This document shows positions 22,935 through 33,490 of a stretch of DNA of 43,189 bases, one piece after another. The notes beneath the pieces were generated by a model that ran no database searches, was not told where the DNA came from, and saw only the letters and a list, made by a program, of their open reading frames with translations. The stretch's first letter is position 1; each line of letters opens with the position of its first letter. Made by a program: the position numbers and the translations under genes. The stretch spans positions 1 through 43,189 of the forward strand of contig JBHIEG010000016.1 in the NCBI GenBank assembly GCA_046760505.1, given 5' to 3'. This DNA comes from CAYFZR01 sp046760505 [NCBI: Candidatus Hydrothermarchaeota archaeon]. Lineage in GTDB: Archaea; CAYFZR01.

Positions 22935-24836
22935 CTACATTCCTAGTTTTTTTCGATTTTTCTCTATATAGCTTAAAATTGCGTCCACCGCTTTAATAGG
23001 ATCTTTTTCAACATTTAAAATTCCACCCGTTAACTCTTTACATTCTTCTGAAAGCAATTTAACAAGATTAGGTGCTCCTGTGACGGTTGGAACAGGATTG
23101 ACATATGTATAGAGACCTAATGCCAAAGCAAATACAGCATCAATGGTGGCTTTTTGCTCCATGTACTCTGGGGCTACCGCGGCTACTGGAAGATCTGGAA
23201 TAGGGACTTCCAGTGCTTTCGATAAAGCGAACAATAAGTCTGCAAGTCTTCCAGTATCAGTACAGGTACCATAGCTGAGAACTGGTGGAATTTTTAGGTT
23301 TTCACAGATTTCTTTAAGACCTTCGCCCGCTAATTCTTTAGCCTCTGGACTACACAGGCCTGCGACTTGCATTGCTCCATTCCCACATCCAAGCGAAAGA
23401 ACAAGAACATCTCGTTTGATAAGTTCCTTTGCCATTCTAATCGTATGCACGTCCTGACCTGAGTCTCTTAGAGTAGAGCATGAAACAAGACCTACAACTC
23501 CTTTTATTTTACCGTCTCTTATTGCATTTAAGAGAGGATCTATCGAGCCGCCTAGAACTTTTAGTATACTCTCTGTGGAGAATCCAACCAGTGCCTCTCT
23601 CTTCGGCAACTTGGTAACAGCCTTAACCGATTTTCTTCGCTCTTTGAAATTATCTATTGCCATGTTCAGAAGTTTTGAAGCCTGTTCCTCTGCTTTTTCA
23701 GGCTCATAATCAACTCTTTCTTCAATACCCTCAAATGAAACCAGTTCGCTTACTGGGAGGAGTTTAAACTTGTATCTCTCTGCATACAAAGGATCGATTT
23801 GCATTGAACAGTTCATATCGCATGCGAAAAGATCAACGCATCCGCTTGCCAGAACCGCTTCCTGAGCGATCCAGTTTCCCGTGAAACCATAGAATACATC
23901 ATCCATTTCCCACCTTTGGATCATTTCCTGACCTGTCTCTATGTTTGCAACAATTCTCAGACCTTTGGCTCCAGCAGCCTTTGCTATTTCCTGCCATTCT
24001 TTTCTTCTGGCTAGTTTTACCATTGCAAAGCCCAGAAAAGGTTCATGACCGTTTGGAAGTACGTTTACATATTCTGGATCAAGAACTCCCAAGTCAACAC
24101 GCATTGAATGGGGTCTCGGTATTCCAAAAAGAATATCTTGACAGTATTCATTGACTATCTGACTCTGATAAGCCATTGCTATGCCAAGGCGCATAGCCTT
24201 CAATGCCAAACTCATGTAGTTACCATCCACATTTGTAAGGCAAGAACTTGCTGAAAGAAGTATCTCGCCATAAATCCCTCCAGGGAAAATATTCAGTTTT
24301 TTCCAAACCTCTTTGCGTTCTTTTGGTGCTAATGCCTCTACAATAAGGCTTGGCTCATAGTATTTTCGGTTAAAATCTGATTCCACAAAATCACAAAGGC
24401 GAATGGCGATTTCCTTCACTGATCCAGATGTGTCTATACCCAGGCGCGCTGCGAAATCCTTCAGTTTATCATATTCTTTAATCTCGAAAGGTGTTTTACC
24501 CTTTGCAGTAGCTCGAAGGGTTCTTATGGTCTGATCTGTGTGGTAGAGATAGGTCGATGCGCCCATTATATTTCTTAGAAGCATCATTCTCATTGCCATG
24601 CCATCCGCGTTAATACCGCACACCCCTTTCTTGTCTTTATTAGCATCTGCACGGCATGGACCGTTGGAGCATAGGTCGCATCTCACTCCAGCCATGCAGA
24701 AAGGACATCTCCTATCAGGATCTCCTCCTAGACCTTGGGCTTCATACCGATCCCAGATATTGTCCATTTTGTCTTCTTTAATACGCTCATACACTCTTAG
24801 AACAGATTCATGGTAAGAAATTCTATCCTTTTCCAT
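22935..24836 (-). CDS. Deviant CooS-family protein lacking a C-cluster cysteine
   Basis: The 633-residue protein has the full CooS scaffold, normally a Ni-Fe CO dehydrogenase. Cluster B/D cysteines are C44, C47, C53, C56, C61 and C73, giving CxxC rather than the CX7CC start seen in the other CooS here. Of the C-cluster residues, His264, C343, C453, C484, C525 and Lys562 are present. The GICCTGNE motif carrying the iron-binding Cys (Cys295 in Carboxydothermus CooS-II) reads ANIETGQE here, with Ile299-Glu300 at the Cys pair. A CooS paralogue from Carboxydothermus that also lacks a canonical cysteine has an Fe-S-oxo hybrid cluster and no CO activity, so this may not be a CODH. No cooF or nickel-insertion gene is adjacent. 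Confidence 0.88.
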   Translation of the reverse strand: MEKDRISYHESVLRVYERIKEDKMDNIWDRYEAQGLGGDPDRRCPFCMAGVRCDLCSNGPCRADANKDKKGVCGINADGMAMRMMLLRNIMGASTYLYHTDQTIRTLRATAKGKTPFEIKEYDKLKDFAARLGIDTSGSVKEIAIRLCDFVESDFNRKYYEPSLIVEALAPKERKEVWKKLNIFPGGIYGEILLSASSCLTNVDGNYMSLALKAMRLGIAMAYQSQIVNEYCQDILFGIPRPHSMRVDLGVLDPEYVNVLPNGHEPFLGFAMVKLARRKEWQEIAKAAGAKGLRIVANIETGQEMIQRWEMDDVFYGFTGNWIAQEAVLASGCVDLFACDMNCSMQIDPLYAERYKFKLLPVSELVSFEGIEERVDYEPEKAEEQASKLLNMAIDNFKERRKSVKAVTKLPKREALVGFSTESILKVLGGSIDPLLNAIRDGKIKGVVGLVSCSTLRDSGQDVHTIRMAKELIKRDVLVLSLGCGNGAMQVAGLCSPEAKELAGEGLKEICENLKIPPVLSYGTCTDTGRLADLLFALSKALEVPIPDLPVAAVAPEYMEQKATIDAVFALALGLYTYVNPVPTVTGAPNLVKLLSEECKELTGGILNVEKDPIKAVDAILSYIEKNRKKLGM

Positions 24837-24959
24837 ATTTTAAACCCCCAGTCAATATTTCACAGTTTTGATAACTGCAGACTTAATTATTTCACTAAGG
24901 AAAAAATTGTCACAAACACAGATTAATACTTTCATTTGTTAATTACGGCTTTGGTGTCT

Positions 24960-25111
24960 ATGATGTCAAATATAACTTCGGTCGAAGAAGTTAGAGGGCA
25001 ATTTTCCATAACAATACCAAAGGCTATAGCTCTTGCATTGGATATTAAAAAAGGTTCTAAACTTGAAGGGAGTTAATACATGGAGAATTAGTAGTTAGGC
25101 TTTCTAAATAG
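24960..25111 (+). pseudogene. Frameshifted AbrB/SpoVT-domain antitoxin-like gene
   Basis: From ATG 24960/24963 the frame reads an AbrB-type N-terminus (EVRGQFSITIPKAIALALDIKKGSKL), then hits a stop at 25074-25076. The missing last strand continues in another frame at 25079-25111 (HGELVVRLSK, then TAG), exactly as in intact AbrB domains (...G-x-L-V-V-R). One indel near 25060-25072 explains this. No toxin gene is adjacent. It could be real decay or a sequencing error. Confidence 0.65.
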
Positions 25112-25177
25112 CCTCTTTGGAACACAAACTTTTGAAATTGACTACCAATTCAAAAAAATAAAATGAGTTAATTAATA

Positions 25178-25560
25178 CTAACATCGGATAATTGGCTCGA
25201 TCACAAAGTCCATTCTTAAAGCGCACCTTTCTCCCGATCTTATAGGTCTCTTAAATTCTATTCTTATTAAAGCATAGTCATCATAATTTTTAACCAATTT
25301 AATATCTACTTCATCTCCACAAGGGATGTATATATTTGTATAATCATCAAAAGAAGCATATTTACCTCGAATGTCATAATCAGCTCCTTCATATCCAAGA
25401 TTACTTCTGTTCTCTCTATCAAGAAAAGAATGATTATAAAAAACAAATTTTTCATGTTTAGTTTCTATATATCCATCTTTAAGAAAATATAAATCTTCAC
25501 CACAATGATTATATCAAACATTTTATTAGCGTCTTCTGCAATAAAAGCAAGAGTCGCCAA
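25178..25560 (-). pseudogene. Frameshifted small gene of unknown function
   Basis: Two overlapping minus-strand frames join into one plausible protein of about 127 residues. A start at TTG 25560, behind GAGGGG, gives MATLAFIAEDANKMFDII. After a frame change within 25502-25515 the sequence continues as YNHCGEDLYFLKDGYIETK and runs about 110 codons to TAG at 25178. The longer part is Asp/Tyr-rich with alternating strands (KYASFDDYTNIYIPCGDE) and ends EPIIRC. I do not recognise the family. The DNA is noticeably more AT-rich than its neighbours, which suggests transfer or decay. Confidence 0.45.
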
Positions 25561-25741
25561 TTTATTACCCCTCAAATTTCTCAGATTCTTAGATATTTAC
25601 TTTTTCTATATGAAAGTGCATCCAATAAAGCCCATTATGCCATAAGAATTAATGATGCTGGGCTTAACTTAAACTAGCTAAGAATTAAAATACAAAAATG
25701 AGTTAAAAATAAAGATAATTAAAAAATTGATGAAAAAATAC

Positions 25742-26923
25742 TTAACTTAGACCCATTGATTCTAAAACTATCTCAGATACATCTCTTACCTTTATATCTG
25801 AACCAGTCTTTTTAACTCCATCTGAGAGGTTCAACCTGCAGAAAGGGCAGCAACTTGCAATCAACTTTGCATCAACAGATATGGCGTCTTCTGCCCGAAT
25901 TTTTGCTAGTTCCATTGCCATTTCGCCGAATTGAGCCCTCATTCCTCCACCAGCGCCGCAGCATCTGGCAAGTTCTCTGTTCTTTTCCATTTCTACAAGT
26001 TCTAAACTTGGTATTGCTTTCAATATCTCTCTGGGCTCATCGTAAATTCCAAGATGCCTTGCCATATGACAGGGATCATGATATGTAACTTTCATGTCAA
26101 TTGGATCTTTAAGATTAACTCTTCCCTCCTCTATTAATTCTAAAATGTATTGCGATGTATGTTTTACTTCAACATCAAAATCTAGACCAAAATTATCTGC
26201 CCATCTGGGATAATCCAAGTAAAGAGTTCTGTAGCAGCCGGCGCAAGATGCAACTATTGTTTCTATTCCTCTATTTTTAAATTCATTTATGTTTTGGGTG
26301 ATTAAATCATATGCAATGTCGAGCTGACCCGTTCTTAGGAATGGAGATCCGCAGCACCATTCGTTTGCTGCCAAGAAATTAAAATCCATTCCAGCGGCAT
26401 GGAATACTTTTGCAGTGCTCTTTGCGAGATCAAGCATTCTATAAGAAGCGGTACAGCCAGCAAAATATAAAACACTGGAATTTTCATTTATCTTTATATT
26501 ATCAGGCATCCAGGCTCCTCTTTTGGCTGGATCTTCATTGTAAGGATTGTGTTTATCCTTTGCAGCGTCTTTTATTCTCAAATGATTTGGCATTGGTCCA
26601 AGTTTCAATCTCACCAGTTCAGATCTAAGTTCTTCCCAGAGTTCTATGGTAGGGATATTAACCTGACAGACTTCGTGACAGTATCCGCATCCGGTACACT
26701 GATATATCCGTTCAACCATTTTATCATCGAATTTAGCCTTTTTATTTAATACATTTTTAAGAAAGAACAATTTTCCCTTGGGGGTAGATGATTCCCACTT
26801 GTCCAGATCATACATGCAGCAAACAGGAACGCAGTACCCGCACTGTGCACAGGCGAAAGTTTCCCAAGACATCTCATCGGATAATTTTAATTTCAAACCT
26901 GCGTACCCTTTCATAGCATTCAT
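25742..26923 (-). CDS. HdrD-like iron-sulfur protein (ferredoxin domain plus two CCG domains)
   Basis: The 393-residue protein has an N-terminal two-cluster ferredoxin domain (CAQCGYCVPVC and CTGCGYCHEVC, about residues 25-95). Two complete CCG domains follow: C-x32-CC-x35-CxxC (YFAGC...EWCCGSP...CAGC) and C-x35-CC-x36-CxxC (YHDPC...ARCCGAGGG...CPFC). In HdrD/HdrB such domains hold noncubane [4Fe-4S] clusters that reduce heterodisulfides; in GlpC or lactate-utilisation proteins they pass electrons to quinones or flavins. No HdrA or membrane cytochrome is adjacent. It is the last gene of an operon with the DsrE-like and CdhA genes, so it is a candidate electron partner of CdhA. Confidence 0.88.
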   Translation of the reverse strand: MNAMKGYAGLKLKLSDEMSWETFACAQCGYCVPVCCMYDLDKWESSTPKGKLFFLKNVLNKKAKFDDKMVERIYQCTGCGYCHEVCQVNIPTIELWEELRSELVRLKLGPMPNHLRIKDAAKDKHNPYNEDPAKRGAWMPDNIKINENSSVLYFAGCTASYRMLDLAKSTAKVFHAAGMDFNFLAANEWCCGSPFLRTGQLDIAYDLITQNINEFKNRGIETIVASCAGCYRTLYLDYPRWADNFGLDFDVEVKHTSQYILELIEEGRVNLKDPIDMKVTYHDPCHMARHLGIYDEPREILKAIPSLELVEMEKNRELARCCGAGGGMRAQFGEMAMELAKIRAEDAISVDAKLIASCCPFCRLNLSDGVKKTGSDIKVRDVSEIVLESMGLS

Positions 26924-26972
26924 CTCTTTCTCTACCTTTCTATTTTATTTATTTAGTTTAGTGTTTATTTTA

Positions 26973-27344
26973 CTAGAACCACATTACTCCATCTACTTCG
27001 AGAGTAAGATCGTTTAAGGTAGCAGCGCCCACGATTATTGCTTCTTCAATGAAATCAGTATCTTTCATGTTTAGCAGATGTTTACTCTGCTCGCATACGT
27101 AAAATTTAACACCCATCTTTGCGGTTTGATCCATCACTTCTTTCAGAGTTGGAAAACTTCCAAGCTTTATCTTCTCTGCTTCTCCTTTTTTCAAAACAGT
27201 TAGACCCATACCCAAGAAATAAATTATTGGTTCCATGCCCATGGCCTTAGCGGTTTGTGCCAGTATAAACGGAGAATATAGTCTTTCTGGTGTGTTTACA
27301 CCGCTTGTTTGCACATACATTATCTTCTTTTTATGTTCAGGCAT
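26973..27344 (-). CDS. DsrE/F-like small sulfur-carrier-fold protein
   Basis: The 123-residue protein has the DsrE/DsrF Rossmann-like fold: KKIMYVQTSGVNTPERLYSPFILAQTAKAMG at the start, a glycine-rich loop IIYFLGMGLTVL, and KVGVKFYV-type strand GVKFYVCEQSKHLL with a single cysteine at the usual active-site place. DsrE-family proteins bind persulfides or hand sulfur between partners, often next to Hdr-like systems. A GGAGAGTGAT ribosome site precedes the ATG. It lies 62 nt after CdhA and 49 nt before the HdrD-like gene on the same strand, so it is the middle gene of one operon. A role with CdhA is not known. Confidence 0.78.
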   Translation of the reverse strand: MPEHKKKIMYVQTSGVNTPERLYSPFILAQTAKAMGMEPIIYFLGMGLTVLKKGEAEKIKLGSFPTLKEVMDQTAKMGVKFYVCEQSKHLLNMKDTDFIEEAIIVGAATLNDLTLEVDGVMWF

Positions 27345-27406
27345 AAATTATCACTCTCCTTTTTATTAAAAAATTTAAAAAATTGGAAACTGAGTTAAAT
27401 CTTTCT

Positions 27407-29785
27407 TCAGATTTTTTTGTTTCTTATCAATCTCTCTAGATTTGTTGGATCGAATCTTGGATCGTATGCTCTTACCTGTCCGCCTTTAATCTTTTTATCC
27501 TTAACCTCAAATCCATGTTCTTTCTCTAAAATTTCCAAAAGCTCGGATCTCCTTGCAATTGGCAGATCTGTCTCGCTTCTTACGAAAAGATACCAATCCT
27601 CTGGATACTCTCCAAAGTACTTCTTGCTCAGATCTAGGTAATGAGTTAATTTTATCGATCTTCCCGGAGCAGTATCGTTTGGTCTCATTACCATGCGAGC
27701 TGTTTGCACTATTGCCTCTTCTTTGGTCTCTGCTGTATAAATCAAATGCTCAGGTCCGGGCTCGAAGTAATGGAAGGAGCCATCTTTTGCATCTATGATC
27801 TGCCATTCCTCTTTTTTGTCCTTTCTTCCAAGATACATTCTCCTGTACTTAGATCCGTGAGGACCAACTATGACTGGAACTCCAAGTCTATTAAATCCAG
27901 TAGCGATAGCAGCTGCTTTCTGAGAGTAGGCTCCCCATGCGACTCCTACCGCTCCGATTCTATTCAGTATGTAATCCGCGATTTCTTCAAAGTTCGCCCT
28001 AAGATTTCTTTGAGCAAATATGTTTGCTACCTTTATGGCTGCTCCAGCAATATGAGAATTAGAGAGACAGGACCCAGTATTGCATACGTTTCCAGCATCA
28101 AATGCACCCGGAAATCTTTCCCAGACCGTTTTTCCTTCATCGTCCTTGTAGAATGATAGATCCATTGCTGCGCATCCTGATGATACAACTATGTATTTAC
28201 GGGAAGCAAATTCTACCACCATATCATAGAGATCCTTTCTTGATCCAGGATAGTTCGAACATCCTACGTATGCTATTATACCAGGTATAGTGCCTAAGAC
28301 AATTGGGGCTCCAACGTTTCTTATCTCAACGTCTGATATAGGACCTCTTCCAGATCTCACGAAAGATTTCTCTGTTTTAGCATTAGCATGCCAGGCTCCC
28401 TCAATAAGGTTTAGCGGAACTATTCCCTGAGGACATTCAAAAGCACATTTATTGCATCCTATACATCTTTCATGGAGATCAACTAGTTTTGATAGATCTC
28501 CTTTCGAAGCAGCCTCATTTGCTTCATGTATAGGCAAATTGCTTGGACATACTCGCCTACATCTTTCGCATTGAGTACAGGTCGATGCTATTTCCTTGAT
28601 TCTTTCTACGTCAGGAATAACCTTGAATTTCTTTCTCTTTGGAGCAATTGCTTTAGCAACCTTTACTGCTACTTCTCCAACTTTATCTGGATCAGTTATT
28701 AATACTCCGGGTTCTTTTCCTTCAACTAAATCTCTTACTATTTCATCTACTGGGTCATTCGTTCTGTTAGGCAATCCATAGCAGATCTGGTTTGTTGTTG
28801 CAATGACAGGCGCCTTTATTTTTTCTGCCTCCTCCATTACAACGGTTCTTACGCACTGCTCGTCAACAATGATAACATCAGGAACTCCGGTTCTTATGAA
28901 CTTCTGCTGATTTGTTATTGGCCCTATTACCTTTGTCTTCTCATAATACCTTGCCATGTCGTGAGCAGTGCAGCATATTGCACAGAGTTCTATCTCATCT
29001 TCCAATCCATTGTCAATTAGATAGTCAATGATTCCAATTCCTGGCAGTACGTTGTGACCTATTCCAAGTATTACTGGCTTCTCCTTATCAACCGTGCCCA
29101 TTCCTATCTCTACCAAAGGCGCATCGGGATCTGCTTTTGGAAAGCCAAAAGTGGATATCTGCGCTATATCTCCAACTTCCATGGTTAGCAAATCCAACAT
29201 TCCAGCATGAAGTGCCTTAGATTCAAAATCTAAGTAAGATCCTTCCTGTCCTGTGTGAACCGCGGATAAACCGTATGTAATCTGCTTCTCCACATAATCT
29301 AAAACCTCTTCAAGATCTCCAAGAGTGGATGGTTTCTTTCCAACTATCAGTCTCGTTAACGGAGCCTCAACATTTATAGCATCTTTACCGATGTCTATCG
29401 GATAATCCGGACCAAATTTTTTTATGAGTCTCTCCAACATGTCTCTTGAATGCGTGTTGTGAGCAGCTGCACCAATCAAACAGGCTGCAAGAACTATTCT
29501 GGCAGTTTGACTTGTTATATCAAGACCGCATGCTCCCCTTCTTCCTTGAGAGAGATCACATTTTCCCATTGTACAAAGATCACAGAAATCAGTATAGGGT
29601 GCATAGAATGGTTTGTATCTTTTTAGCAATTTAAAGTCCCATTCTCGCAAATCCAAGATATCTGGCTTTGGTGTTGGACCCAATGGCTCTTCCCATGTTT
29701 CCTCTTCTTCTATAATTTTGCCTATGTTGATCGAAATGTTTTCAAGACCCTCTATCTTGAAAACTTTAGTTTTGTTATTTATCAT
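27407..29785 (-). CDS. cdhA: CO dehydrogenase/acetyl-CoA synthase subunit alpha (CdhA)
   Basis: CdhA is the CO-oxidising/CO2-reducing Ni-Fe subunit of the archaeal ACDS complex. This 792-residue copy has N-terminal cluster cysteines C68, C71, C76 and C86. C-cluster ligands are His244, C272 (ICCTAHD), C311, C509, C538 and C573, with GPHGSKYRR further on. An inserted two-cluster ferredoxin domain has C403, C406, C409, C413 and C441, C444, C447, C451. All expected ligands are therefore present. GGAGG lies 6 nt before the ATG. Unusually, CdhB, CdhC, CdhD and CdhE do not follow; DsrE-like and HdrD-like genes do. A shared promoter element lies at 29819-29841, and an Lrp/AsnC gene is divergent. Confidence 0.95.
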   Translation of the reverse strand: MINNKTKVFKIEGLENISINIGKIIEEEETWEEPLGPTPKPDILDLREWDFKLLKRYKPFYAPYTDFCDLCTMGKCDLSQGRRGACGLDITSQTARIVLAACLIGAAAHNTHSRDMLERLIKKFGPDYPIDIGKDAINVEAPLTRLIVGKKPSTLGDLEEVLDYVEKQITYGLSAVHTGQEGSYLDFESKALHAGMLDLLTMEVGDIAQISTFGFPKADPDAPLVEIGMGTVDKEKPVILGIGHNVLPGIGIIDYLIDNGLEDEIELCAICCTAHDMARYYEKTKVIGPITNQQKFIRTGVPDVIIVDEQCVRTVVMEEAEKIKAPVIATTNQICYGLPNRTNDPVDEIVRDLVEGKEPGVLITDPDKVGEVAVKVAKAIAPKRKKFKVIPDVERIKEIASTCTQCERCRRVCPSNLPIHEANEAASKGDLSKLVDLHERCIGCNKCAFECPQGIVPLNLIEGAWHANAKTEKSFVRSGRGPISDVEIRNVGAPIVLGTIPGIIAYVGCSNYPGSRKDLYDMVVEFASRKYIVVSSGCAAMDLSFYKDDEGKTVWERFPGAFDAGNVCNTGSCLSNSHIAGAAIKVANIFAQRNLRANFEEIADYILNRIGAVGVAWGAYSQKAAAIATGFNRLGVPVIVGPHGSKYRRMYLGRKDKKEEWQIIDAKDGSFHYFEPGPEHLIYTAETKEEAIVQTARMVMRPNDTAPGRSIKLTHYLDLSKKYFGEYPEDWYLFVRSETDLPIARRSELLEILEKEHGFEVKDKKIKGGQVRAYDPRFDPTNLERLIRNKKI

Positions 29786-31448: not shown

Positions 31449-33428
31449 TCAGATTCCTAGTGCCTTCCTTTTCTCCTCTATGTGATTTTCTATTATGTTT
31501 GCTGCTTCCCTTGGATCCACTTCCACGGCGAACTTACCTCCAAACAGGCTTTCAGCATCTACTGCGAGCAGTTTCGACACGAGTTCGCTTCCCGCTACAG
31601 GAGGGACCACACCGAGATGTACCAGCAAACCCAATGCCACTGCGCCTGTACCTATGGCTGCTGCCTTTTCCGTAGCCCACTCTGGCGCTGATGCGGCTAC
31701 AGGAAGGTTGCTCAAATCAACATCTAACGCATCTGCTAGGGCTCCGAGCAGTATGAATATCCTTGAATTATCCACGCAGGATCCCATGTGCAAAACTGGC
31801 GGAATGCCTAAAGCCCCGCATATAGCCCTTAAGCCTTCTCCTGCATGTTCTCTGGCTTCAGGTAGCAAAAGTCCCGCTTTCGCTAGGGCATGTCCTGAAC
31901 AGCCTGTGGTCACAACCAGTATATCTCTTTTTATGAGTTCCCTGGCTAAATTTACATGGTTGTAGTCGTGCGTAACCTTTGGATTGTTACAACCGACGAT
32001 ACCAACCGCTCCCTTTATTTTTCCCTCCTTAATCGCATCTAGCAAGGGAGCGAGATCTCCATTTAGCAGGTCCAGTATCGCCTCTACGGAAACGCCGGCT
32101 ATCAGTTTTGATTTCTCATCTATCAATTTTACCTCGTTAGATCTATTTTTGTAATTGTTTATTGCCTCTTTAACTATTTTTTCAGCGACCTCATCTGCCC
32201 TTTCCTCTGAGAATTCAATGTGAATTACGTTTTCATTCTGAGGCATCTTTGCCTCATTCTGAGTTGTTATAAGCCTTGTGTGATAGTGAGAAGCAATATT
32301 CGCCAGACTCGGCATAATGCATTGTACATCCACCGTGAATGCATCCACAACTCCGCTTAAAATAGCCAGTTCCTGCTGTAATGTATTGCCAATCTGGGGA
32401 ATTCCATGTCTTGATAATACCTCGTTTCCGGTGCAGCATATTCCCGCTACCGTAATACCCTCTGCTCCAATCGCCCTAGCCTCTTCCTCCAGCCTCTCGG
32501 ACCACTCCACCACCTTTTCAGATAAAAGCGGAACATGTCCATGGACGATTATGTTTACATTCTCTTCCCTTAGCACGCCGAAATTAGTCTCCGTTTCCAC
32601 TATGGATGGAGTTCCGAAAAGAACGTCCTGGAGCAATGTGGATATCAGGAGCGAGTAAAAATCTGCAAGCCCGCATCTAACCGCATGCAGAATTATATTA
32701 ACTGGATCAGCATCGACTCCCTGCGTAGTCCTATGCATCGCCTCTGCTATCTCTTTATAACCGCTCCTCGGAAATACTCCCAGTTCCTTTAATTTTTCCA
32801 CCCTCTTTTTTGGCGTAAAACTCTCTGCGAATACCATGTAGTCCCTTTCTAATGAACCTACAAAATCTTTCCATGCCTCCAATCCCACTTCTACGGCTAT
32901 TTGTTCTATCTCCTTTCCTTCTGTTTCTATTCCGATTTTTTTTGCTATTTGGAGCAGTTTTTCTTTGTCTGTAATTTCATACGGTGCTTCTTTCTTTCCA
33001 GTCTTCATCAGAGTCTCTGCGACATGAACTCCATGCTCTACATGGGCAGCGGTACCTCCTGCAATGAATCTAAGCAAAGATCTCGCCACCATTAGATCCC
33101 TATCCGCTCCGCATATTCCCTCAGTGGCATTAAACCTGATTCTGTATAATCTGGGCAGGAATGCCGGATCCTCAGGCAATACCCTGCATGGACCGTTTGC
33201 GCAGTTTCTGCAGCAGACTCCAAGAGATCCGAATGGACACCTCACCGCCTCTATTACAGGAAGTACGGCCTCAAATTTCTCAACTCTATCGAATACCGTG
33301 GGAATTTTTTTCGTTCGAGCATATTCCAGCATCTCTTTCGTTGCTGGATCTGCTGTAACACCGTATGTTTTCTTGAACTCTTCTTCTTTCTTCTTTTGCT
33401 GTCTCCATAAAATCTCAGAAATTTCCAT
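31449..33428 (-). CDS. cooS: Anaerobic carbon-monoxide dehydrogenase catalytic subunit (canonical CooS)
   Basis: CooS oxidises CO to CO2 (or the reverse) at a Ni-4Fe-4S C-cluster in a cytoplasmic homodimer. The protein (659 residues) has the D/B-cluster pattern CX7CC-x2-C-x4-C (C64, C72, C73, C76, C81) plus C106. All C-cluster ligands are present: His298, C332 (GICCTGNE), C370, C480, C510 and C551, with the base Lys588 (APEWATEKA). ATG 33428 behind GGGTGGA is a better start than TTG 33440. It is the only gene in its transcription unit as far as I can see; no cooF, cooC or hydrogenase genes are adjacent. Nearby HdrB/HdrD-like proteins are possible electron acceptors. Confidence 0.95.
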   Translation of the reverse strand: MEISEILWRQQKKKEEEFKKTYGVTADPATKEMLEYARTKKIPTVFDRVEKFEAVLPVIEAVRCPFGSLGVCCRNCANGPCRVLPEDPAFLPRLYRIRFNATEGICGADRDLMVARSLLRFIAGGTAAHVEHGVHVAETLMKTGKKEAPYEITDKEKLLQIAKKIGIETEGKEIEQIAVEVGLEAWKDFVGSLERDYMVFAESFTPKKRVEKLKELGVFPRSGYKEIAEAMHRTTQGVDADPVNIILHAVRCGLADFYSLLISTLLQDVLFGTPSIVETETNFGVLREENVNIIVHGHVPLLSEKVVEWSERLEEEARAIGAEGITVAGICCTGNEVLSRHGIPQIGNTLQQELAILSGVVDAFTVDVQCIMPSLANIASHYHTRLITTQNEAKMPQNENVIHIEFSEERADEVAEKIVKEAINNYKNRSNEVKLIDEKSKLIAGVSVEAILDLLNGDLAPLLDAIKEGKIKGAVGIVGCNNPKVTHDYNHVNLARELIKRDILVVTTGCSGHALAKAGLLLPEAREHAGEGLRAICGALGIPPVLHMGSCVDNSRIFILLGALADALDVDLSNLPVAASAPEWATEKAAAIGTGAVALGLLVHLGVVPPVAGSELVSKLLAVDAESLFGGKFAVEVDPREAANIIENHIEEKRKALGI

Positions 33429-33490
33429 TTTTCCACCCAAGAAATATAAGTCAATTATATATATTATTTTTTCACAAAGGTACTGAAAAA

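What the first reader, a model, noticed from the sequence alone, without database searches (positions are those of the whole stretch)
22935..24836. CooS-family protein with Ile-Glu where the C-cluster Cys-Cys pair should be
The sequence shows His264, C343, C453, C484, C525 and Lys562 in place, but the ICCTGNE motif reads NIETGQE, so the Cys that binds the unique iron of the Ni-Fe cluster is absent. The D-cluster start is also changed to CxxC. A Carboxydothermus CooS paralogue missing a canonical cysteine is known to hold an Fe-S-oxo hybrid cluster with hydroxylamine activity and no CO activity. I infer that this archaeal protein may be a third kind of enzyme between CODH and hybrid-cluster protein, kept next to two true CODHs.
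Basis: partly seen in the sequence, partly recalled or inferred. Interest (0 to 1): 0.8.

Follow-up and report, generated by a model that had tools for sequence, protein, structure and literature searches.

The report
Archaeal CooS-V-type hybrid-cluster protein gene
This archaeal gene looks like a carbon monoxide enzyme but carries the altered metal site of a known, poorly understood side-branch, and some of its relatives sit beside an electron-carrier gene known from anaerobic nitric-oxide defence, which suggests a job to test.

Summary
The 633-aa protein keeps His264, C343, C453, C484, C525 and K562 but reads Ile299-Glu300 where Ni-CODHs have Cys-Cys. This is not a third kind of enzyme: it is the published signature of CooS-V-type proteins (clade D, structural group D-1). 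Carboxydothermus CooS-V has Ile-Glu at the same spot, and its Glu295 and Glu556 bind an Fe-S-oxo cluster; the window protein has both (E300, E560). Sequence, tree and predicted fold place it there. Glu stands in 82 of 82 D-1 rows, Cys in 20 of 20 other CooS rows.
What I add: in 14 of 78 surveyed D-1 genes, a gene of the FrdX family, the ferredoxin-like partner of hybrid cluster protein (HCP), lies within 700 bp on the same strand. None of 23 other CooS matches in 50 of these genomes has it so close; in a second sample it was 5 of 20 D-1 against 0 of 69. FrdX is in 10 of 12 genomes where D-1 is the only CODH-family match; none of the 12 has HCP. I infer a FrdX-fed low-potential stress reductase. 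The window itself shows no FrdX, and no biochemistry was done.

The parts
22935..24836 (-). CooS-V-type (structural group D-1, clade D) protein, 633 aa
   Evidence: best PDB match CooS-V 7b7q E 6.9e-214; TIGR01702 764 bits; tree; model matches CooS-V best, Z 46
23925..23945 (-). N298-I-E-T-G-Q-E motif; E300 (23937-23939) replaces the first C-cluster Cys (Cys295 of CODH-II)
   Evidence: Glu295 is a cluster ligand in CooS-V (PMC9311411)
24045..24047 (-). His264, cluster ligand position
23808..23810 (-). Cys343, cluster ligand position (Asn342 before it, as Asn337 in CooS-V)
23478..23480 (-). Cys453, cluster ligand position
23385..23387 (-). Cys484, cluster ligand position
23262..23264 (-). Cys525, position of the persulfide Cys521 of CooS-V
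23151..23159 (-). E560-Q-K562: second hybrid-cluster Glu (Glu556 of CooS-V, Glu494 of D. vulgaris HCP) and conserved Lys
24696..24707 (-). C44-x2-C47, type III D-cluster (inter-subunit [2Fe-2S] in CooS-V)
24618..24680 (-). B-cluster cysteines C53, C56, C61, C73
27407..29785 (-). context: CdhA-type CODH with intact Cys pair
31449..33440 (-). context: ordinary CooS with intact Cys-Cys (P0003)

Best explanation
The gene encodes a CooS-V-type (group D-1) hybrid-cluster protein. Shown by sequence and predicted fold: CODH scaffold, the CooS-V and HCP ligand set (His, two Glu, four Cys), a CxxC bridging-cluster motif, loss of the acid-base His. Inferred from CooS-V: E300 in place of Cys disfavours the Ni cluster, so a [4Fe-3S] cluster forms that opens to substrate when reduced and takes up oxo bridges and a Cys525 persulfide when oxidised; the protein is a homodimer that works as a low-potential reductase, not a CODH. 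Inferred here from gene context: in some relatives the electrons come from FrdX, the ferredoxin-like partner of HCP, and the job is nitrosative or related redox-stress reduction, often in genomes where HCP was not found. In the window's own organism the donor is unknown.
For: Closest solved protein is CooS-V. All checked active-site letters match it. One clade with CooS-V, SH-like support 99. A Glu at Cys295 in CODH-II gave Ni-deficient, CO-inactive enzyme with slightly higher NH2OH reductase activity (PMC9311411). FrdX within 700 bp of D-1, same strand, in 14 of 78 surveyed D-1 genes, against 0 of 23 other CooS matches in 50 of these genomes (Fisher p 0.035). Second sample of 294 genomes: 5 of 20 D-1 against 0 of 69 other CooS matches (p 0.0004, or 0.0017 without the seed genome). 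FrdX lies on either side of D-1; parsimony on the D-1 tree needs 11 changes of linkage, of which well-supported branches force 4. FrdX lies beside HCP in 3 genomes of the same set and in hcp - Crp/Fnr regulator - FrdX order on a named Roseburia plasmid. Knock-down of frdX or of hcp sensitises C. difficile to NO (PMC12915319, passages). A. fulgidus cooS, assigned to clade D by PMC13056359, is not induced by CO (PMC4543118, passages).
Against: No FrdX in the 43-kb window, and 61 of 78 surveyed D-1 genes have none in the DNA seen. In the 294-genome sample 31 of 57 FrdX genomes have neither D-1 nor HCP, and other CooS genes also go with FrdX (24 of 61 against 33 of 233), so an anaerobe effect is mixed in; HCP itself lay within 700 bp of FrdX in 0 of 17 there, once at 1,080 bp. 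Six of the 50 D-1 genomes have HCP but no full-length FrdX. Links of ordinary CODH systems to the nitrogen-oxide response are also in print: a predicted HcpR site before the CODH-associated hydrogenase operon of D. vulgaris and a D. desulfuricans cooS, clade not stated, in the list of NO-changed genes. CooS-V reduces NH2OH very poorly (kcat 0.13 per s), shows no NO reductase activity above background, and its cluster potentials are about 300 mV below those of E. coli HCP, from which its authors suggest a different role. A review reports that M. acetivorans CooS1F and CooS2 help remove CO at high pressure (PMC4652020, one passage).
Confidence: 0.7

Rival explanations
1. It is still a CO-linked enzyme: in vivo it takes up Ni or otherwise oxidises CO as an auxiliary CODH beside the two true CODHs of the window.
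For: Sits in a stretch with CdhA and an intact CooS. Review statement that M. acetivorans CooS1F and CooS2 assist CO removal; Inoue et al. cite the same genetics for D-1.
Against: The Cys295 ligand and the acid-base His are lost; CooS-V has no Ni and no CO activity; A. fulgidus cooS is not induced by CO; 12 of 50 D-1 genomes have no other CODH-family match at E 0.001.
Confidence: 0.07
2. It is a redox sensor or regulator of anaerobes rather than a catalyst, as suggested for clades C and D by the eLife 2026 genomic-context study.
For: Slow turnover of the one substrate found and reversible cluster restructuring; transcription regulators near about 10 % of clade D genes in that study; an Rrf2-family regulator near 7 of 78 genes here.
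Against: Strict conservation of the whole active site and linkage to an electron carrier in 14 of 78 fit catalysis better; D-1 occurs without any other CODH-family match.
Confidence: 0.12
3. It is a hybrid-cluster reductase, but its substrate is not a nitrogen oxide (for example a sulfur or oxygen species), which would fit its very low potential. This overlaps with the best explanation and differs in the substrate only.
For: Potentials about 300 mV below HCP; poor NH2OH turnover and no NO turnover detected.
Against: FrdX is tied to HCP and nitrosative stress in bacteria.
Confidence: 0.35

Closest known systems
CooS-V of Carboxydothermus hydrogenoformans (PDB 7b7q, 7b9a); structural group D-1 of clade D (Inoue 2019)
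   Same: I-E motif, second Glu, His, four Cys, CxxC bridging-cluster motif, Asn before the first retained Cys, Tyr for the acid-base His, fold (Z 46, 49 % identity over the aligned residues)
   Different: About half the residues differ; the window protein belongs to a tight subgroup of archaeal and bacterial sequences (75-80 % identical to the window in the 29 aligned), with CooS-V outside it
Hybrid cluster protein (HCP, hydroxylamine reductase)
   Same: Cluster-ligand set; some relatives share the FrdX neighbour
   Different: 43 bits against a cut-off of 361; separate clade; fold Z 22-27
Ni-CODH CooS (CODH-II, CODH-IV)
   Same: Scaffold, B-cluster, four of five C-cluster Cys, His, Lys
   Different: First C-cluster Cys is Glu, acid-base His is Tyr, D-cluster type III

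Membership tests
CooS-V type / structural group D-1 | Glu in place of the first C-cluster Cys (Cys295) | tested here: met
   E300; Glu in 82 of 82 D-1 rows, Cys in 20 of 20 other CooS rows
CooS-V type / structural group D-1 | Type III D-cluster CxxC-x5-C | tested here: met
   C44-x2-C47-x5-C53
CooS-V type / structural group D-1 | Glu two residues before the conserved Lys | tested here: met
   E560, K562
CooS-V type / structural group D-1 | Tyr at the acid-base His, with C-cluster His and four Cys kept | tested here: met
   Y96, H264, C343, C453, C484, C525
CooS-V type / structural group D-1 | One clade with CooS-V | tested here: met
   SH-like 99, FastTree only, 107 rows; the tool warns of long branches, CooS-V among them
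CooS-V type / structural group D-1 | Fe-S-oxo hybrid cluster, no Ni, no CO activity | not testable with these tools
   needs protein
Ni-CODH as an active enzyme | Complete set of five C-cluster Cys and acid-base His | tested here: not met
   first Cys is Glu, His is Tyr
Hybrid cluster protein (HCP) | Over the curated cut-off of TIGR01703 | tested here: not met
   43.3 against 360.8 bits
Hybrid cluster protein (HCP) | Hybrid-cluster ligand set (His, 2 Glu, 4 Cys) | tested here: met
   By letters. The automatic alignment left HCP's own THGE Glu beside a gap, not under E300; the equivalence rests on PMC6344411 and PMC9311411
FrdX-linked D-1 operon | FrdX gene next to the D-1 gene | tested here: not met
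   no FrdX match anywhere in the window; rest of the genome not held

The most novel reading that the evidence does not exclude
CooS-V-type proteins are the FrdX-driven counterpart of HCP: a hybrid-cluster reductase built separately on the CODH scaffold that took over HCP's electron donor and serves nitrosative or redox defence in many archaea and bacteria that lack HCP, including organisms with no other CODH at all.
Probability: 0.4. Interest if true: 0.6.

Novelty: new member of a known kind. Interest (0 to 1): 0.4.

Why it matters
CooS-V-type genes are annotated as CO dehydrogenases, so they can inflate claims of CO metabolism in archaea and metagenomes; the E300/E560 and CxxC letters tell them apart. 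Their physiological role is open: a 2026 context study of 1,376 CODHs found no clear neighbour pattern for clade D. The FrdX link gives a candidate partner and a direct test.

Tried and rejected
Rejected: a third kind of enzyme (CooS-V has the same letters). Rejected: sequencing error or lone mutant. Rejected: another Cys at the lost ligand column (none). Rejected: that D-1 occurs only with other CODHs, as PMC9311411 states from earlier work: 12 of 50 D-1 genomes show one match to TIGR01702 at E 0.001 or better; CdhA shows up in other genomes of that call as weak matches and does not in these. Four of the 12 are records titled 'chromosome' (L022, L025, L033, L049); the other eight are drafts. 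Led nowhere: NCBIfam gives the FrdX-like protein only generic ferredoxin hits below cut-off, so its name rests on gene order and published descriptions, not on a FrdX model or a named FrdX sequence. In the Acetoanaerobium record with a FrdX match my HCP query found nothing in the 12.7 kb seen. The passages seen of the Methanoperedens CO paper (PMC13079737) do not mention clade D.

Limits. The 78 surveyed are 77 of the 80 loci plus the window; L059, L069, L079 dropped out of my ORF pick. 65 of 78 have at least 1 kb on both sides. The 50 genomes belong to 50 of the 80 loci, picked by hand after I had seen the neighbourhoods, and hold 16 of the 17 FrdX loci, so 14 of 78 is the fairer rate. The second sample is the class of G038, chosen because G038 has the pair; at most 8 (FrdX) or 4 (others) first-look candidates per genome were scored there, so those counts are lower bounds. 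One FrdX place per genome was measured. The FrdX model A1 used 14 of 17 members; L011 (broken frame), L045 and L046 were left out. Among the 32 FrdX genomes, G009 and G010 match in two pieces, G015 is partial and G022 has a stop inside; G007 and G026 show only separate pieces and are not counted. The script labelled two D-1 genes (G026:C28, G041:C29) as other CooS and so printed 48 and 25; searches show both carry the Glu, giving 50 and 23. Of the 23, 21 were checked for Cys-Cys by alignment or motif; G023:C1:252498 and G012:C1:626666 were assigned by elimination. The 80 loci are the best of 384 candidates, so distant D-1 proteins are not covered. Only 5 of 16 aligned HCPs went into the tree.

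Full report
OBSERVATION. The coordinates are right but the gene is on the minus strand. The protein (P0001, 633 aa) has H264, I299, E300, C343, C453, C484, C525, E560 and K562 and CxxC at 44-47.

WHAT IT IS. phmmer against the PDB puts Carboxydothermus CooS-V (7b7q) far ahead of every true CODH: E 6.9e-214 against 6e-120 for the next. In that alignment CooS-V reads SIESGQE where the window reads NIETGQE. So the Ile-Glu pair is the CooS-V trait itself. Inoue et al. 2019 (PMC6344411; sections read, passages in 15, 71) list it as structural group D-1: first C-cluster Cys is Glu, type III D-cluster, Tyr for the acid-base His, and a Glu two residues before the Lys as in HCP. Jeoung et al. 2022 (PMC9311411; parts 1-4 of 5 read) solved CooS-V: Glu295 and Glu556 bind Fe of a [4Fe-3S-nO] cluster; no Ni; no CO oxidation or CO2 reduction; very slow NH2OH reduction. 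The window has the equivalents E300 and E560.

FAMILY TESTS. Of 384 candidate relatives in genome contigs the best 80 were kept, at 74-80 % identity, from archaea and bacteria. In an alignment of 102 CODH rows (81 D-1 rows from window and loci, CooS-V, 20 other CooS rows including the window's own P0003 and CODH-IV), Glu is at the column in 82 of 82 D-1 rows and Cys in 20 of 20 others; 79 of the 81, window included, share all 18 checked letters, and the two exceptions keep the Glu. A FastTree tree with 5 of 16 HCPs as outgroup makes D-1 plus CooS-V one clade (99); the tool warns of long branches. The AlphaFold2 model (30 sequences, mean pLDDT 81.6, under 50 in residues 30-37, 39-62, 200-202 and 582-589) matches CooS-V best (Z 46.1 and 45.9), then true CODHs at Z 39-43 and HCPs at Z 22-27 among the 50 rows shown. 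The protein is far below the HCP model's cut-off.

GENE CONTEXT OF RELATIVES. I called ORFs in the 80 loci and the window and clustered neighbours; 78 of the 81 sequences, the window among them, could be used. The commonest neighbour family is a ferredoxin-domain protein of 243-321 aa (175 in L011, whose frame is broken) with a conserved Cys-rich C-terminal part: on the same strand within six genes of D-1 in 17 of 78, and within 700 bp in 14 of 78. It lies upstream in some loci (L002, L013) and downstream in others (L025, L026, L036). An Rrf2-like regulator is near 7 genes and a cupin near 5; one and two members were scanned with Pfam.

IT IS THE FrdX FAMILY. The same protein (47-51 % identical) lies 120-134 bp from HCP genes in three genomes of the set. 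In a named record, Roseburia sp. 831b plasmid NZ_CP135163.1, the order is hcp, Crp/Fnr-family regulator, then this protein (44.5 % identity to that of L080). That is the published hcp - hcpR - frdX group (PMC1274295 and PMC545781, passages; PMC12915319, passages); knock-down of frdX or of hcp made C. difficile NO-sensitive. I had no named FrdX sequence to compare with, so the name rests on gene order.

CONTROLS. I searched 50 whole genomes, those of 50 of the 80 loci (limit of 50 per call; picked by hand). FrdX, complete or nearly so, was found in 32 of 50, HCP over the cut-off in 11 of 50. FrdX lay within 700 bp, same strand, of 14 of 50 D-1 genes and of 0 of 23 other CooS matches in the same genomes (p 0.003; with the fairer 14 of 78, p 0.035). 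27 of the 32 FrdX genomes have no HCP over the cut-off; 6 genomes have HCP and no full-length FrdX. Twelve of 50 genomes have one TIGR01702 match only, the D-1 gene; none of the 12 has HCP over the cut-off and 10 of the 12 have FrdX, one of them with a stop in the frame (G022).

A second sample, 294 genomes drawn from the class of G038 (Dehalococcoidia by the title of L054), was drawn by the tool, although I chose the class because G038 has the pair. D-1 (at least 60 % identity to P0001) is in 20, HCP in 17, FrdX in 57. FrdX is in 16 of 20 D-1 genomes against 41 of 274 without D-1; in 12 of 17 HCP genomes against 45 of 277; but also in 24 of 61 genomes with other CooS against 33 of 233, so part of this is simply anaerobic life. 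Adjacency is more specific: 5 of 20 D-1 (gaps 19-521 bp), 0 of 69 other CooS matches, and for HCP 0 of 17 within 700 bp (one at 1,080 bp). 31 of 57 FrdX genomes have neither D-1 nor HCP. On a tree of the 78 D-1 proteins the linkage needs 11 changes by parsimony, but branches of good support force only 4, and the label is more clustered than in shuffles (11 against a mean of 15.7), so it is partly inherited.

MECHANISM. Shown: ligand letters, scaffold, clade, and the FrdX link in some relatives. Inferred from CooS-V: hybrid cluster, redox-gated access, reductase direction. Inferred from context: FrdX as donor and a stress-reductase role. Substrate is the weakest step, because CooS-V is slow on NH2OH and not seen to turn over NO with the donors tried. 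The low potentials of the CooS-V cluster (-390, -170 and +80 mV) would suit a ferredoxin-type donor; that is my inference.

AGAINST. The window has no FrdX, and its D-1 gene follows a 905-bp stretch with no ORF of 50 aa or more, behind an HdrD-like and a DsrE-like gene. A review reports CO-related effects of M. acetivorans CooS1F and CooS2 (PMC4652020, one passage); whether those two are D-1 I did not test, although Inoue et al. link D-1 to that genetics. Ordinary CODH systems are also linked to the nitrogen-oxide response in print: a predicted HcpR site before cooMKLXUHF in D. vulgaris (PMC545781) and a cooS of D. desulfuricans in the list of NO-changed genes (PMC5701242). For the reading: A. 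fulgidus cooS was not induced by CO (PMC4543118, passages).

IN PRINT. Searches with the terms FrdX, HcpR, CooS, CooS-V, hybrid cluster, nitrosative and Rrf2, with passages of PMC545781, PMC5701242 and PMC10502027, showed me no statement linking FrdX to CooS-V or D-1. Inoue et al. associate D-1 with a zinc-binding dehydrogenase and HypA/HypB; the eLife 2026 paper (PMC13056359, passages) reports no clear pattern for clade D. Only open-licence papers are held, and no supplements were read.

VERDICT. Observation correct; the 'third kind' was already described in 2019 and 2022; new member of a known kind. The FrdX link is the part worth following.

Noticed in passing
L177, L183, L196 (1377-1378-aa frames): Single open frames that begin as a CooS/AcsA-type CODH with intact Cys-Cys and run on into what reads like an acetyl-CoA synthase (AcsB-like, by eye), in the genomes of L013, L010 and L037 (titles: Methanomassiliicoccales, Thermoplasmata, Thermoplasmata). 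A fused CODH-ACS in archaeal genomes; not scanned with a family model (one search failed; letters seen).
   Followed up: no
window 25742-29785, minus strand: CdhA stands in a row with a DsrE-family gene and an HdrD/GlpC-like iron-sulfur gene; no other CODH/ACS subunit was found among the 35 of 74 window ORFs that were scanned.
   Followed up: partly
window 24837-25741: 905-bp stretch upstream of the D-1 gene with only short ORFs; a + strand piece (24936-25076) looks like an AbrB-type DNA-binding remnant by eye, and a minus-strand stretch near 25200-25440 reads like a decayed gene.
   Followed up: no
G029, G033, G035, G041, G042, G045 (five of six from Methanosarcinaceae by the titles of L044, L048, L051, L061, L066): These D-1 genomes with HCP have no full-length FrdX but a 129-169-aa frame matching only FrdX positions 3-114: perhaps a short FrdX form.
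   Followed up: no
L135, L140 (genomes G027, G032): Rrf2-like regulator directly next to FrdX away from D-1, although D-1 is elsewhere in the same genome: a hint at common regulation.
   Followed up: no
L181, 7.9 kb (G045:C28:200-8100): A CooS relative with Asp where the second C-cluster Cys should be: the published clade B signature, a different cluster variant in a Methanosarcina genome.
   Followed up: no
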